42,469 bases of DNA, from positions 1 through 42,469 of the forward strand of contig PLYR01000134.1 of the NCBI GenBank assembly GCA_003153435.1, written 5' to 3'. Below the pieces are notes generated by a model. It had not been told where the DNA came from, searched no databases, and saw nothing but the letters and a program-made list of their open reading frames with translations. This document shows, piece after piece, positions 21,368 through 28,446 of the stretch. Each line of letters begins with the position of its first letter. The stretch's first letter is position 1. The stretch is from Bacteroidota bacterium (GTDB lineage: Bacteria > Bacteroidota > Bacteroidia > Palsa-965). A program made the translations under genes and the position numbers.

Positions 21368-22090
21368 TTATTCTTTAATTAAATTCTTTAAAATTTCCAA
21401 GGATATAGTAAGCTCGTATTTTACGACAAGATTTCCCTTCGGGTTTTCTTCAGTCATTATCTGATTGGGATTTGCCCGCAGGTTTAACATCCTTTCTTTG
21501 TCATAAGGAGCGCTTGTTTCCAAAGTTTCCACATTTAGAATTCCAAGTACTTTGGCGAGGTATTCAGGTGTGGGATAAATGAAATTTCCATCGACACCCA
21601 GCGTTTTGTCAACAACAAAACCAATCCTGGTAAACATTGCAAGAGTATAATCAGCGCATATTCCTAGCAACGTTTTAAAGTGAAGCTGATTAATAATCGA
21701 TACCCCGGCACGGGTCAGCAGGGTACTGATTCCCTTGCCAGCGACAGTCTTCGAATTCCATAGACCACAAAGTTCTCCAGCTCCTCCATTTAAGCAGAAA
21801 TTGTTCACCTGTGCGTAAATTTTAGAATCCATTTTCCCGATCGCTTCTTCCAAAGGAAGTGGAGTTACCCTGTCGGCAATGTGTGTTCTCACACCCCCAA
21901 GCATTTCTCCAGTCTCTGTCATGGCCACTACCCCGAATACTCCTGGGTTAGTAATCCAGTCTTCATTATTTGTTGTAATATTCTCGATACCATAATCATT
22001 CAACACTCTTCTGTGCCCTTCCAGGTACTTCAGAGCTGTTTCAGGCTCAAACAAAGGATAAAACACCCGGATAATAATCATACAGATCAT
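21368..22090 (-). CDS. GNAT-fold acyltransferase-like protein, partner of the E1-like/nitroreductase protein
   Basis: 240 aa, no signal peptide. Not a familiar named family, but the strand-helix order is GNAT-like: GEMLGGVRTHIADRV (62-76, substrate strand), AGELCGLWNSKTVAGKGIST (104-123), where VAGKGIST is in the place of the acyl-CoA pyrophosphate loop, then FKTLLGICADYTLAMFTRIGF (138-158), like the C-terminal half of GNAT and N-acyl amino-acid synthases of the FeeM type. Its start overlaps the stop of the 780-aa E1/nitroreductase gene by 4 bp (22087-22090), so the two are translationally coupled and the proteins probably act together. What is acylated is unknown; an N-acyl amino acid is one possibility. 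Confidence 0.6.
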   Translation of the reverse strand: MICMIIIRVFYPLFEPETALKYLEGHRRVLNDYGIENITTNNEDWITNPGVFGVVAMTETGEMLGGVRTHIADRVTPLPLEEAIGKMDSKIYAQVNNFCLNGGAGELCGLWNSKTVAGKGISTLLTRAGVSIINQLHFKTLLGICADYTLAMFTRIGFVVDKTLGVDGNFIYPTPEYLAKVLGILNVETLETSAPYDKERMLNLRANPNQIMTEENPKGNLVVKYELTISLEILKNLIKE

Positions 22091-24429
22091 TTAATTACCA
22101 AAACATCTTCAAGAAGCCGTCTCAGAGATTTAATCTCCATTTGATCTGCAAGGGAAAGACGGAAAAGAAAAATTTCTCCAACCGGAGGTGGCAGTGGAAA
22201 TAACGTTTCAAACGAAGTTCTCAATTTTTTTAATTCCATTTGAGTTTCCGGATTCAGACCGGCACCTTTCCCCTGAATGAGCCGCGAAAAAAAGAAAGTG
22301 CAAGGCGAAACCGGTTGAAATGAAATTCGTCTTTTGTTAGCAGTAAGCCAAGCCCGCTGAACAGCCCGTCCTCCCTGAAAGAAAAATTCAGGTCCGTAGG
22401 ATGGCATAGTTACCAGACCGAGACAAGAAGCCGCAGCAACGCTTTTACGCGCAAGATTTTCAAATGCCCTTCCCCCCTTCCAATTATTCAGATGTTTAAT
22501 GACATCGTTATGTCTTGCCATTAGAAATCCAATATGTTCAGAAGGTGTCAGGTCTACCGTCTCTAAATCTACACCATCTCTGGTCCTTTCAGCCTCTTCC
22601 CGGGTCCAACGTATTTCGTTAACAAAATTCGTGTGTCCTACAGTATGAAGAAGACGAATCCGTTCAACACTTGCAATGATTTCACCACATCTTTCCAAAT
22701 CATCCGGTTTTTGAAGAAAGTGTAATCCCGCACCAGGAATTGTTCTGACGGCATCTCTTATTTCCTTCAGTATTTGCTCATCAATTGGTTTTCGGGTTCC
22801 GATCTTACGATTTGTGCTTCTGAGAAAGATCACACTTGCAAGATCATCGACCGCATGTGGTTCGACCGGCAGATCTTGAGGAGTCTTATCCTTTGAATAA
22901 AAACGGAACATAGCAACAAGTTTATCTTTACCGGGAAGGAAATGTTTTAAAAACACTTCCAAGTTCATGGAATGCGCTTTCAGTATAAGGTTTTCGGTTG
23001 CCGCGCCGAGACCAATGTGGGAGGCTGTGTCAGCATAGTCGAGCAGTGAAACTGAACGAATACGATCATGAAAAAGGAAGAGATTGTTTCCGGAAACAAA
23101 CCATTTCCAGGGCTGGGCGTTTCCCCCTGATGGAGCTGCTATTGCAGCGCTTACCAAATCAATGATTTGCTCTTGAGTTAAGGCCAGTTGATTTTTATCG
23201 GGTTGAACTCCAGAGCAGTCTATCATCTCTTGCATCTCCAATTCCGTTAGCTCCCTTTCTGTATCGGCAGGAATATGATTTTGCAAGGAAGCATTGTTTT
23301 TATCACCGACCAGGTCTTCAAAATCTACAAAGTATCTTCCTGATTCATGGTATTGGTCTAAAGCAATCCTGCGACAAACGTCAGCCGTCAGTGCTCCTCC
23401 AAGCACGACAGAAGAAGCCAGTTGAGGCCAACTGCTAATGCTTTGACCGACTTCAATCATCGATGCTTTGAGTTTTGAGGAAATAGTTTCAGTACCTATC
23501 ATCGGAAGGAGGTACGGAATTTTTTGTTCGTTGGTGAGATCTTTGATCCGCGATACGTCCAGGTGATCTATCAAACCGTGGAGGAGGGCTCGCTCAGGTT
23601 CAAGATCGAACCGCTCTACATCAAGCATTCCCCGGTCATTTAACTGCATAACAACGGGTATTTGCAAAGCCTTGGCCATTTGCCGACAACGGATTTTAAT
23701 ATCCAGACCATCGCATTCTTCTACGAGTATGTTAAGCTTTCCTCCTTCCTGAAAGAAACGCGCCATATTTTCTTCAGTCAGCCCCTCTGTAAAACACACA
23801 CATTTCAGAAATGGGTCTATTTCAGCAATCTCCCGGGCAGCAGAAATGGCTTTGGAAAGTCCGAGTTGATAGACCCCGGCTTGAATCCGATTAAGATTTG
23901 TTAATTCAAGCAAATCGAAATCTGCCAGCCTGATTTCTCCAAATCCTCTTTCCATAGCAAGAGTAATGGCTATTGTTCGTCCAACGGATAAGCCAACGAC
24001 ACCGATCTTAAGCTTACCAAGCTGATCTCTTTCTGCAACGGTAATTTTATACTGATTCCGGTTGGTTCTCACTTCAATGAATTCCTCCTCATCAAGTAAA
24101 TGAATGAGCTTATGCGACCAGGGATAATATACCCAGACTCCATATTCTTCTGGAGGGACCATGCCCAGATGTGCAACAACACCGTTGTCGAGCTCTGTTG
24201 TAGAAAGCCGGACTTTGGGGTTCTTTGTTTTGATTAATTCCTGAAGTTGACTTATTAATTCATCGTGGATAGTAACGGATGGCGAACTCTGGAGGAGTGT
24301 TTCCAGTTTGTTTTTGTCAGCTAGGTTATTAAGCCTGTAAAAAACAGGATGATAAACCGTTGTCCCTTTTTCTTGTTTCCGAAGTAAATCAGGCAGAGAC
24401 TGCTTTTCTACGCTTTCATCTTTCATCAT
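22087..24429 (-). CDS. Rv1355c/MoeY-like fusion: ThiF/E1-type adenylation domain plus nitroreductase domain
   Basis: 780 aa, soluble. Residues 1-135 are an N-terminal extension with no clear match. 140-360 are a ThiF/MoeB/E1-like adenylating domain: nucleotide loop KIGVVGLSVGRTIA (141-154), ADFDLLELTNLNRI (169-182) with the ATP-contacting Asp and the Asn-Arg pair, and EIDPF (203-207). The CxxC zinc pairs of ThiF/MoeB are not seen. 415-735 are a nitroreductase (FMN) domain of the Acg-like type, beginning with AAPSGGNAQPWKWF (431-444). The architecture matches mycobacterial Rv1355c, annotated as MoeY. No molybdopterin genes are nearby, so a molybdenum role is not supported here. An E1-like enzyme paired with an FMN oxidoreductase recalls azol(in)e-forming peptide tailoring, but no YcaO protein or precursor peptide is seen. 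True reaction unknown. Confidence 0.85.
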   Translation of the reverse strand: MMKDESVEKQSLPDLLRKQEKGTTVYHPVFYRLNNLADKNKLETLLQSSPSVTIHDELISQLQELIKTKNPKVRLSTTELDNGVVAHLGMVPPEEYGVWVYYPWSHKLIHLLDEEEFIEVRTNRNQYKITVAERDQLGKLKIGVVGLSVGRTIAITLAMERGFGEIRLADFDLLELTNLNRIQAGVYQLGLSKAISAAREIAEIDPFLKCVCFTEGLTEENMARFFQEGGKLNILVEECDGLDIKIRCRQMAKALQIPVVMQLNDRGMLDVERFDLEPERALLHGLIDHLDVSRIKDLTNEQKIPYLLPMIGTETISSKLKASMIEVGQSISSWPQLASSVVLGGALTADVCRRIALDQYHESGRYFVDFEDLVGDKNNASLQNHIPADTERELTELEMQEMIDCSGVQPDKNQLALTQEQIIDLVSAAIAAPSGGNAQPWKWFVSGNNLFLFHDRIRSVSLLDYADTASHIGLGAATENLILKAHSMNLEVFLKHFLPGKDKLVAMFRFYSKDKTPQDLPVEPHAVDDLASVIFLRSTNRKIGTRKPIDEQILKEIRDAVRTIPGAGLHFLQKPDDLERCGEIIASVERIRLLHTVGHTNFVNEIRWTREEAERTRDGVDLETVDLTPSEHIGFLMARHNDVIKHLNNWKGGRAFENLARKSVAAASCLGLVTMPSYGPEFFFQGGRAVQRAWLTANKRRISFQPVSPCTFFFSRLIQGKGAGLNPETQMELKKLRTSFETLFPLPPPVGEIFLFRLSLADQMEIKSLRRLLEDVLVIK

Positions 24430-26110: not shown

Positions 26111-26186
<76 letters not shown>

Positions 26187-26187
26187 C

Positions 26188-26485: not shown

Positions 26486-27931
26486 CTATTCCTTCACGAC
26501 CATCCTCACAAGGATAACACCCTCCAAGGAGGTGTAAATCAAAAAATAAATACCGGGAGAAAGACCTGTAAGGTCCAGTTCGGCATGCTGGTTTATTATC
26601 AGCTGGACGGTTTGGCATTCCTGTCCCACTTCATTCCTTAAAACTATTTTTCCTCCCTGCCCGTGTCCAGTAGCTACGGTAATTTTGTTCCGGGTGGGAT
26701 TCGGAAACACTTCTAGGGAGGGGTTGTTGATTTGTTCCTTTATGCCTGTTGTGGAATGAGTAGTGTCGCAGATAGGAAGAGCACTGACCCTGGGAGCGAA
26801 AAAGGCCGCCAGGTTATTTTCCCTCAGCGTGGAGTTGTCGTAACCATGACAGGGGTTATTGGTTTGATCCGAACAACTGGCAGTACCCAGAAGAAAGCTG
26901 TAAGGGAATACAGTTGTCGTGAAATCGTCCTGGATTACATACCCCAGAAACTGGGACGAATTCCAGTGGCTGATAGCGTGGCTGCCATACACCTTGGGTG
27001 TGTGGGCAATGCCGTAACAGCCATATCCGTTGGTCATGCACCATGACAAGCCGGCGTATACATTACCACTGTCTATCGGCACGATGAGGTCACAGGGCTG
27101 GTGAAAGGAGTAAATGTCCGGTCTGCGTCTCTTTGCAGAATGATAGGTGAGCAGGTTAGAGGCCAGGGCCCCGAAATTGTTACCTATGGCTTTGATGGTG
27201 TAGTTTATGTTCGAAGGCTCCAGGTTGCCATCGATGCCTCCCAGATCGGGACGGGGGATACTGGGGTTGGGGAATGTTTCAGGGAGATTGTATGAGCAGT
27301 TGTATGTGTTGGGGTTTGGCGGAGGGGCATTGGCAAGGGAGAAGGTCTGTGGCCAGCGTTCAATAACGGTGTCCAGCAAGCCTATGCCGAGCGCAATGCA
27401 AGAGCCCGCACTCTCCCCGGCAACGAACACACTGTTCGTGTCTATCCGGTACTGGTTATTGCGGTTAACGAGGTATCTCACGGCACCTTTCCCATCCTGA
27501 ATGCCCCTGTACAAGGCTCTGATCCATTCGGCACTGTCGGAAGCAAAGAGGCAGGAGTAGTTAGGGTAGTTGCAGTTCCAGGCGGCATGGTCTGATACAA
27601 AGCCCAGGCGGTAATTGATGCTGGCGGTGACATACCCTCTTCTGGCAAACTGCTTGCATAGATTGGTGATGCTGGCATCGCTCTTGTCGCCCGCCAGAAA
27701 GGATCCTCCATGTATCCATACCAGGAGAGGCTTTCTGGAACGGTGGGAAGGATCGTCACACAGGGGATTATAGATATCCATGCGCAGGGTATCTGAACTG
27801 CCATTAAAATTAAGGGCGGTCCCGTAAATCACGTTCAGGGTACTGTCGTAAGTGTATTTTTTGTCCAGCCATTGCTGGGCAGAACACAGGGCAGAGCATA
27901 AAAGCAGTAGGGCGAAGAGGAGGCACTTCAT
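26486..27931 (-). CDS. Secreted carboxylesterase-type alpha/beta hydrolase with T9SS C-terminal sorting domain
   Basis: 481 aa from the ATG at 27931, which places a signal peptide (MKCLLFALLLLCSALCSA) at the very start; an ATG at 28012 would add 27 residues without function. Carboxylesterase type-B features: oxyanion motif VWIHGGSFLAGDKSD (H74-G76), YVTASINYRLGF, nucleophile S174 in VFVAGESAGS, and a likely catalytic His in GSHAISHW. The last 85 or so residues (PSLEVFPNPTRNKITV ... LSPGIYFLIYTS) are a type IX sorting domain, so the enzyme is exported across the outer membrane and attached or released. Substrate unknown (ester, lipid or feruloyl-type). By eye the gene is more GC-rich than its neighbours, and it lies between tRNA-Ala and the tRNA-like copies, suggesting acquisition. 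Confidence 0.9.
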   Translation of the reverse strand: MKCLLFALLLLCSALCSAQQWLDKKYTYDSTLNVIYGTALNFNGSSDTLRMDIYNPLCDDPSHRSRKPLLVWIHGGSFLAGDKSDASITNLCKQFARRGYVTASINYRLGFVSDHAAWNCNYPNYSCLFASDSAEWIRALYRGIQDGKGAVRYLVNRNNQYRIDTNSVFVAGESAGSCIALGIGLLDTVIERWPQTFSLANAPPPNPNTYNCSYNLPETFPNPSIPRPDLGGIDGNLEPSNINYTIKAIGNNFGALASNLLTYHSAKRRRPDIYSFHQPCDLIVPIDSGNVYAGLSWCMTNGYGCYGIAHTPKVYGSHAISHWNSSQFLGYVIQDDFTTTVFPYSFLLGTASCSDQTNNPCHGYDNSTLRENNLAAFFAPRVSALPICDTTHSTTGIKEQINNPSLEVFPNPTRNKITVATGHGQGGKIVLRNEVGQECQTVQLIINQHAELDLTGLSPGIYFLIYTSLEGVILVRMVVKE

Positions 27932-28148
27932 GGTTTTTGAATAAGGTGAACCCGGGTTTGTTTGAAACCCTTTGCAAGATAACGGAAAGGAATGAATCAT
28001 CATAAATAGCAATCTACCGAAGATAAAAGAGAATTAATAAACTACCCCGGGGGAATTGCCTCGCCCTTCGTACCCCGATCAAAAGAGAAAACGAAATCAA
28101 GCGCAAAAAGAGCCGGAAATACATTGAATGGTTGATTAAAAGCAAGGT

Positions 28149-28245
28149 TGGGGATTAGCTCAGCTGGTCCCGACGGATGTCGGGACGTTTGCATGGCATG
28201 CAAAAGGTCGTCGTCCCGATGGCTATCGGGATCCGGTATTCTCCA
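28149..28245 (+). other. tRNA-Ala-like element 1, with palindromes replacing D-arm segment and T loop
   Basis: 97 nt, alignable base for base to tRNA-Ala(GGC) at 26113. Kept: acceptor TGGGGAT/ATTCTCC (first pair lost), TAGCTCAGCTGG, anticodon arm TTTGCATGGCATGCAAA (28188-28204; the outer C-G pair has become T-A), AGGTCGTCG and the TCCG..ATTCTCC end. Changed: CTAGAG of the D arm is replaced by TCCCGACGGATGTCGGGA (28168-28185), and the T loop GTTCGAC by TCCCGATGGCTATCGGGA (28214-28231). The 3' half of the D stem is lost, so this is unlikely to be an ordinary tRNA. No consensus promoter is seen directly upstream. Either a palindrome-invaded pseudo-tRNA or a structured RNA. Confidence 0.75.
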
Positions 28246-28248
28246 CTG

Positions 28249-28280
28249 ACCCGTCTGCCCCTGGCTGACGGGTTTTTTTT
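28249..28280 (+). terminator. Terminator-like hairpin after tRNA-like element 1
   Basis: Stem ACCCGTC (28249-28255) with GACGGGT (28267-28273), an 11-nt loop, then a run of T to 28280. It starts 3 bp after the tRNA-like element. Confidence 0.8.
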
Positions 28281-28301
28281 GTGGTTGATTAAAAGCAAGG
28301 T

Positions 28302-28398
28302 TGAGGATTAGCTCAGCTGGTCCCGCCGAATGGCGGGACGATTGCATGGCATGCAAAAGGTCGTCGTCCCGATGGCTATCGGGATCCGATATTCTTCA
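28302..28398 (+). other. tRNA-Ala-like element 2, with palindromes replacing D-arm segment and T loop
   Basis: 97 nt, the same length and layout as element 1. D-arm palindrome TCCCGCCGAATGGCGGGA (28321-28338) and T-loop palindrome TCCCGATGGCTATCGGGA (28367-28384). The anticodon loop (GCATGGCATGC core) is unchanged, but the outer stem pair is A-A. The acceptor is TGAGGAT/ATTCTTC: relative to the tRNA, G3-U70 has become A3-U70, G2-C71 has become G-U, and pair 1 is lost. The 3' end reads ACCA. Its D palindrome differs from element 1 by a compensated A-T to C-G change, so the hairpin is kept. A terminator follows directly. Confidence 0.75.
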
Positions 28399-28400
28399 CC

Positions 28401-28446
28401 AAACCGGACAACACCAAAAATTGGGTTAGTTGTCCGGTTTTCTTTT
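28401..28446 (+). terminator. Strong terminator after tRNA-like element 2
   Basis: 12-bp perfect stem AAACCGGACAAC (28401-28412) with GTTGTCCGGTTT (28429-28440), a 16-nt loop, followed by TCTTTT. Confidence 0.9.

What the first reader, a model, noticed from the sequence alone, without database searches (positions are those of the whole stretch)
28130..28446. Tandem tRNA-Ala-like elements with hairpins in place of the D-arm segment and T loop
Two 97-nt sequences align along their whole length with the real tRNA-Ala(GGC) of this window (26113-26186), but in both the same two places (CTAGAG of the D arm and the T loop GTTCGAC) are replaced by an 18-bp perfect hairpin. The anticodon loop is untouched, and the acceptor can still fold apart from its first pair. 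Leader, tRNA-like part and terminator repeat with a 153-bp period, so the unit looks like a designed transcription block rather than random decay. Possible readings: a small structured RNA that mimics tRNA-Ala (decoy, sRNA, or synthetase/ribosome ligand), or a palindromic element that inserted twice into a tRNA copy which was then duplicated. I know of no described family with this layout.
Basis: partly seen in the sequence, partly recalled or inferred. Interest (0 to 1): 0.82.

Follow-up and report, generated by a model that had tools for sequence, protein, structure and literature searches.

The report
Relic of a tRNA-splitting nuclease element
The two odd tRNA-like copies are leftover ends of a small selfish DNA element, widespread in Bacteroidota but apparently undescribed, that sits inside a split tRNA gene, carries an intact replacement tRNA and a GIY-YIG DNA-cutting enzyme, and leaves broken tRNA pieces whose loops have become hairpins.

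Summary
Both tRNA-Ala-like copies are real: hairpins (7-bp stem, 4-nt loop) replace the D-arm segment and T loop. They are not a free-standing RNA gene. The "leader" is the 3' end of a GIY-YIG nuclease ORF (28084-28158; E=3.5e-6), and the two terminators are unrelated. Across Bacteroidota, 102 of 122 loci of this nuclease subfamily have a tRNA within 250 bp, all on the same strand. In named genomes it is 56 of 80, again all same-strand. An intact tRNA plus the nuclease typically sits inside a split copy of that tRNA: partial copies upstream are 5' parts (34 against no 3' parts), those downstream 3' parts (63 against 2). The replaced segment is nearly always a hairpin (89 of 95 unique), at isotype-typical positions. 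Nuclease phylogeny follows tRNA isotype and the gene is under purifying selection. A same-genus genome has the full element at tRNA-Ala; a Cytophagales genome has the window's D+T-hairpin layout behind an intact nuclease gene. The window holds a decayed, nuclease-less relic. Best model: a homing-type nuclease that cuts tRNA genes and carries a replacement tRNA; hairpins mark target sites that cannot be recut. Cutting, homing and hairpin function are inferred.

The parts
26113..26187 (+). intact tRNA-Ala(GGC), the parent of the copies; no other tRNA-Ala(GGC)-like hit in this genome in the DNA search
   Evidence: ARAGORN, Rfam 60.3 bits
28084..28158 (+). C-terminal remnant of a GIY-YIG nuclease ORF (RENEIKRKKSRKYIEWLIKSKVGD*); its stop codon TAG lies inside tRNA-like copy 1
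   Evidence: translation; tblastn with the intact nuclease of G056, E=3.5e-6 over 28084-28146; same C-terminus before the pseudo-tRNA in L234 and L116
28149..28245 (+). tRNA-Ala-like copy 1 (pseudo-tRNA)
28168..28185 (+). D-arm hairpin TCCCGACGGATGTCGGGA replacing CTAGAG
28214..28231 (+). T-loop hairpin TCCCGATGGCTATCGGGA replacing GTTCGAC
   Evidence: identical hairpin in the T arm of the G056 element
28246..28280 (+). terminator-like hairpin of copy 1, resembling the tRNA-Ala terminator in the same-genus element of G003
   Evidence: sequence
28282..28311 (+). second, shorter piece of the nuclease 3' end (WLIKSKVED*)
   Evidence: direct repeat D1
28302..28398 (+). tRNA-Ala-like copy 2 (pseudo-tRNA)
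28321..28338 (+). D-arm hairpin TCCCGCCGAATGGCGGGA (one compensatory pair against copy 1)
28367..28384 (+). T-loop hairpin TCCCGATGGCTATCGGGA
28403..28444 (+). terminator-like hairpin of copy 2, unrelated in sequence to that of copy 1

Best explanation
The copies are the decayed right-hand boundary of a mobile element that sits inside a tRNA gene. The complete element in relatives reads: [leader + tRNA 5' part + hairpin] - [leader + intact tRNA + terminator + small GIY-YIG nuclease gene] - [hairpin + tRNA 3' part + terminator]. SHOWN: this layout, its same-strand order, the isotype-typical hairpin position, clustering of nuclease phylogeny by tRNA isotype, purifying selection on the nuclease, and presence/absence within the window's genus. 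INFERRED: the nuclease cuts the intact tRNA gene at that position in naive DNA. Recombinational repair from the element, using the flanking tRNA halves as homology arms, copies in the element with its own intact tRNA, which keeps the cell alive. The hairpins in the leftover halves (anticodon, D or T arm) destroy the target and tRNA function. Cutting of the element's own tRNA, or recombination between repeats, produces the tandem arrays. In the window the nuclease gene is lost except for its last codons, a carboxylesterase-type gene lies between it and the intact tRNA, and the last unit (nuclease tail + pseudo-tRNA) was duplicated once.
For: Nuclease tail directly before copy 1. A same-genus genome (G003, L022) has the complete element at tRNA-Ala, while same-genus G002 has tRNA-Ala without it but an Asn element. 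L234 (Cytophagales) has the window's D+T-hairpin pseudo-tRNA-Ala right behind an intact nuclease gene, and G004 has the same D hairpin. 102 of 122 loci with a tRNA within 250 bp, 102 of 102 same strand, about 1% expected. Replication in named genomes: 56 of 80, 56 of 56 same strand. Upstream pieces 34 5' and 0 3'; downstream 63 3' and 2 5'; replication 19:1 and 45:0. Leaders duplicated in 17 of 36 upstream pieces and terminators in 49 of 80 downstream pieces, against 4 of 266 random pairs. 89 of 95 unique replaced segments are hairpins against 12% of shuffles. Asn position 24|35 in 8 genomes with covarying inner pair. Isotype clustering 36 changes against 66 shuffled, 0 of 200 as low. dN/dS mostly 0.04-0.2. 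Tandem arrays of up to 10 units. Precedent: phage GIY-YIG enzyme SegB cuts DNA of its tRNA region and drives tandem amplification (PMC13096335).
Against: No cleavage, homing or transcript was measured. The intact tRNA inside the element appears identical to the target, so how the element escapes self-cutting is unexplained. Numbers of upstream and downstream units are not correlated (rho -0.16, p 0.10), so strictly paired nested insertion is not the only route. In the window the intact tRNA-Ala lies 2 kb away with another terminator, so the relic could derive from a different tRNA-Ala copy. Hairpin function is untested: covariation could come from template switching, since loops are seen inverted in L052, L197 and G003. 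20 of 122 loci lack a tRNA within 250 bp, partly at contig ends.
Confidence: 0.72

Rival explanations
1. A functional small RNA that mimics tRNA-Ala (decoy, synthetase or ribosome ligand).
For: Copy 1 keeps G3-U70, A73 and the anticodon arm; copy 2 folds as a cloverleaf, z -3.3; one compensatory change between the copies.
Against: Related pieces are almost all 5'-only or 3'-only and cannot form a tRNA-like acceptor; copy 1's minimum-energy fold is not a cloverleaf; the leader is nuclease coding sequence; no Rfam or ARAGORN hit.
Confidence: 0.05
2. Insertion of a dispersed palindromic repeat (REP/RPE-like) into loops of redundant tRNA copies; the nuclease neighbourhood is incidental or the nuclease moves the palindrome.
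For: TCCCGATNNNNATCGGGA palindromes are dispersed in 83 of 198 Bacteroidia genomes, up to 93 per genome, control 0, and about a quarter to a third of a one-per-genome sample lie in tRNA pieces. Some pseudo-tRNA hairpins are exactly this repeat (L164, L167, L189).
Against: Element hairpins have many different sequences (82 distinct) but isotype-typical positions shared across families, often replacing a whole arm rather than interrupting a loop; the same-strand link to the nuclease is total.
Confidence: 0.15
3. The hairpins are a working part of the element, a DNA or RNA structure that the nuclease or the replication machinery recognises (a cleavage or recombination site such as transposon-end hairpins), rather than scars.
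For: Hairpins flank many elements on both sides and keep pairing while sequence changes.
Against: The arm replaced differs between isotypes and sometimes several arms of one piece are replaced; some pieces lack a hairpin; template switching can keep palindromes perfect without selection.
Confidence: 0.25
4. Assembly artefact or a single recent duplication of a decayed pseudo-tRNA without wider meaning.
For: The window genome is a draft of 149 contigs; only two copies in it.
Against: The same architecture occurs in isolate genomes of many genera, and the window's own D+T-hairpin layout recurs in an independent Cytophagales genome. The last duplication of the unit does look local and simple.
Confidence: 0.03

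Closest known systems
SegB of T-even phages (free-standing GIY-YIG homing endonuclease of the phage tRNA region; PMC13096335)
   Same: GIY-YIG nuclease gene beside tRNA genes, no intron; reported to cut tRNA-containing DNA; tandem amplification of the tRNA-nuclease segment; wide range of isotypes
   Different: Here in bacterial chromosomes; a single-domain protein of about 80-100 aa of UPF0213 type; the tRNA is split into halves with an intact copy inside; hairpins replace tRNA arms; isotype follows nuclease lineage
Group I introns with GIY-YIG homing endonucleases in tRNA anticodon loops (own knowledge; PMC3984707 on bacterial group I introns)
   Same: Nuclease-driven elements in tRNA genes, often at the anticodon
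   Different: No intron: the host tRNA is restored by a whole second copy, not by splicing; no Rfam intron hit in the window or in the first 37 nuclease loci scanned
tRNA-integrating genomic islands / integrases that restore the tRNA 3' end (own knowledge)
   Same: Element at a tRNA gene with a displaced 3' fragment downstream
   Different: Element under 1 kb with a GIY-YIG gene as its only recognised ORF in the units examined; displaced pieces on both sides; hairpins
UPF0213 / YhbQ-type GIY-YIG proteins (PDB 1zg2, 1ywl)
   Same: Closest solved relatives of the nuclease, single GIY-YIG domain
   Different: No tRNA linkage known to me for these; function uncharacterised
Rickettsia palindromic elements, REP/RAYT repeats (own knowledge; PMC3733652)
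   Same: Short palindromes inserted in or near genes, sometimes RNA genes
   Different: Element hairpins vary in sequence but not in tRNA position and belong to a nuclease unit

Membership tests
Free-standing GIY-YIG homing endonuclease gene | GIY-YIG domain with conserved catalytic residues | tested here: met
   Met in relatives: Pfam GIY-YIG 2.8e-17; invariant Y5, Y16, G18, R26, H30, E62 in 12 relatives. In the window only the last 24 codons remain.
Free-standing GIY-YIG homing endonuclease gene | Gene lies in or next to its target and interrupts it | tested here: met
   5' parts upstream, 3' parts downstream of tRNA + nuclease
Free-standing GIY-YIG homing endonuclease gene | Target specificity shared by related enzymes | tested here: met
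   isotype clusters on the nuclease tree, 36 changes against 66 shuffled; Ala in 37 of 56 relatives nearest the window's lineage
Free-standing GIY-YIG homing endonuclease gene | Presence/absence between close relatives | tested here: met
   same genus: full at tRNA-Ala in G003, absent in G002, relic in the window; these are species, not close strains
Free-standing GIY-YIG homing endonuclease gene | Cuts the element-free target and is copied into it | not testable with these tools
   needs a cleavage and homing assay
tRNA gene | Recognised cloverleaf with D and T loops | tested here: not met
   no ARAGORN or Rfam call for the copies
Group I or II intron | Intron ribozyme core | tested here: not met
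   no Rfam intron hit in the window or 37 nuclease loci
REP / RAYT-type palindromic repeats | Dispersed repeat of constant sequence | tested here: not met
   82 distinct hairpins at tRNA positions; TCCCGAN6TCGGGA occurs at only 5 places in the own genome, 3 of them here and 1 in a tRNA-Leu fragment

The most novel reading that the evidence does not exclude
A natural, chromosomal 'cleave-and-rescue' homing drive against essential tRNA genes: a nuclease of about 80-100 aa that cuts a tRNA gene, carries the intact replacement, and makes leftover target copies uncuttable by converting their arms into hairpins; widespread in Bacteroidota and a new class of minimal mobile element.
Probability: 0.4. 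Interest if true: 0.9.

Novelty: new variant of a known kind. Interest (0 to 1): 0.74.

Why it matters
It points to a class of very small mobile elements (tRNA + GIY-YIG nuclease, about 400 bp per unit) in most Bacteroidia genomes sampled, aimed at essential tRNA genes and apparently undescribed. If the inferred mechanism holds, it is a natural parallel to engineered cleave-and-rescue gene drives and to phage SegB. It would also explain tandem tRNA fragments, tRNA-like false positives and many orphan GIY-YIG genes in Bacteroidota annotation.

Tried and rejected
tRNA mimic or decoy RNA: rejected because relatives carry half-tRNA pieces. Rfam search: only the real tRNA. Strict nested-insertion arithmetic (equal numbers of upstream and downstream units): not supported. 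Phage origin: no relative in IMG/VR, no D-hairpin copy there, only distant phage GIY-YIG hits. D-hairpin pattern over 296 phylum genomes: found only in the window's genome, so that subtype is rare. A broad 12-protein alignment was too diverse for collection scans, so a closer set was used. Literature searches found no description of tRNA-split GIY-YIG elements in Bacteroidota; only open-access papers are searchable.

Full report
1. OBSERVATION. The window has one intact tRNA-Ala(GGC) at 26113-26187. Two copies of it lie at 28149-28245 and 28302-28398. In both, CTAGAG of the D arm and GTTCGAC of the T arm are replaced by 18-nt hairpins with a 7-bp stem and 4-nt loop; the shuffle expectation is 0.02 sites against 5 matches found. 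The repeat covers 125 nt at 92% identity with spacing 153, but the terminators are unrelated in sequence. Between the copies the D hairpin changes A-T to C-G on both sides. Copy 2 folds as a cloverleaf; in copy 1 the two hairpins pair with each other in the minimum-energy fold.

2. THE 'LEADER' IS CODING. Read in frame, 28084-28158 gives RENEIKRKKSRKYIEWLIKSKVGD*, the C-terminus of a small GIY-YIG nuclease (tblastn E=3.5e-6), with the stop codon inside the tRNA-like copy. The spacer before copy 2 repeats the end of it (WLIKSK). The full-length relative is 83 aa, Pfam GIY-YIG 2.8e-17, nearest solved structures UPF0213 proteins 1zg2 and 1ywl.

3. RELATIVES. A DNA search of 148 genomes found tandem, hairpin-bearing partial tRNA-Ala copies in several families. 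In G056 they surround an intact tRNA-Ala followed by a GIY-YIG gene. A search with that protein gave hits in 124 of 198 Bacteroidia genomes. In the 122 loci examined in detail, 102 have a tRNA gene within 250 bp and all 102 are on the nuclease's strand; about 1% per locus is expected. The tRNAs are of 14 isotypes. An independent scan of named genomes (Flavobacterium, Mucilaginibacter, Muricauda/Flagellimonas, Algoriphagus, Pontibacter, Aquimarina, Chitinophaga and others) gave 56 of 80 with a tRNA nearby, 56 of 56 same strand, 37 of them tRNA-Ala. These include isolate genomes, so it is not a draft-assembly artefact.

4. THE ELEMENT SPLITS A tRNA GENE. Partial copies upstream of the intact tRNA are 5' parts (34; 12 middle, 0 3' parts). 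Those downstream are 3' parts (63; 14 middle, 2 5', 1 full). The replication gives 19 5' to 1 3' upstream and 45 3' to 0 5' downstream. Leaders are duplicated with 17 of 36 upstream pieces and terminators with 49 of 80 downstream pieces, against 4 of 266 random pairs. So an intact tRNA plus nuclease gene lies inside a tRNA that was cut in two, and both halves carry overlapping middle sequence with the hairpin. G003, in the window's genus, shows the full form at tRNA-Ala, with a terminator like that of window copy 1. G002, same genus, has tRNA-Ala without it but carries an Asn element. The window's exact type (D and T hairpin, anticodon arm kept) follows an intact nuclease gene in L234, a Cytophagales bacterium, and the D hairpin recurs in G004.

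5. HAIRPINS. Extracted by their tRNA flanks alone, 89 of 95 unique replaced segments fold as hairpins, against 12% of shuffles, with 82 distinct sequences. Positions are isotype-typical across families: Asn 24|35, Met 37|48, Val 26|44, Asp 37|50. In Asn the inner pair is CG, AU or UA with 100% pairing (only one pair of six covaries in that small set). For Ala the anticodon arm is commonest, then T, then D (a loose scan that includes some chance hits). Within a locus, hairpin loops are sometimes exact reverse complements of each other (L052, L197, G003), which fits template switching. Pairing is therefore not by itself proof of selection.

6. NUCLEASE. The tree clusters by isotype (36 changes against 66 shuffled, 0 of 200 as low; a Met clade of 13 with SH-aLRT 99), but few columns leave many forks open. 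dN/dS is mostly 0.04-0.2, even between tandem copies. Arrays reach 10 units.

7. MECHANISM. Shown: anatomy, polarity, specificity pattern, purifying selection, patchy presence. Inferred: cutting of intact tRNA genes at the hairpin position, repair from the element with the tRNA halves as homology arms, rescue by the carried tRNA, hairpins as uncuttable scars, arrays from self-cutting or repeat recombination. The phage enzyme SegB gives a direct precedent for a GIY-YIG enzyme that cuts tRNA-region DNA and drives tandem amplification of tRNA and nuclease (PMC13096335). Not explained: protection of the element's own tRNA, the origin of the hairpin, and the lack of correlation between upstream and downstream unit numbers.

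8. VERDICT. The finding is a decayed end of such an element. As a local feature it is a relic; as a pointer it leads to a widespread and, in the open literature searched, undescribed type of tRNA-targeting GIY-YIG element.

Noticed in passing
198 Bacteroidia genomes, pattern TCCCGATNNNNATCGGGA: A dispersed 18-nt palindrome occurs in 83 of 198 genomes, up to 93 copies per genome, with no hits for the reversed control; most sampled copies are not at tRNAs. Its nature is unknown.
   Followed up: partly
L005 (G000:C99) 419-436: A tRNA-Leu-like fragment in the window's genome has its T loop replaced by TCCCGATAACTATCGGGA; no tRNA is called there.
   Followed up: partly
L041 (G000:C119) around 39750: A GIY-YIG gene of the own genome lies near a tmRNA gene rather than a tRNA.
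   Followed up: no
L166 (G117:C9:906046-910392): Ten GIY-YIG genes in tandem with a 457-bp period downstream of tRNA-Met.
   Followed up: partly
L013 (G143:C22): tRNA 3' pieces with T-loop hairpins lie in what looks like a 16S-23S rRNA spacer, just before the 23S start.
   Followed up: no
window 26486-28012: A carboxylesterase-type gene with a C-terminal Por secretion sorting domain lies on the minus strand between the intact tRNA-Ala and the element relic; it may have arrived by insertion or rearrangement.
   Followed up: no
window 22087-24429: Predicted protein with a ThiF domain and a nitroreductase domain, an unusual combination.
   Followed up: no
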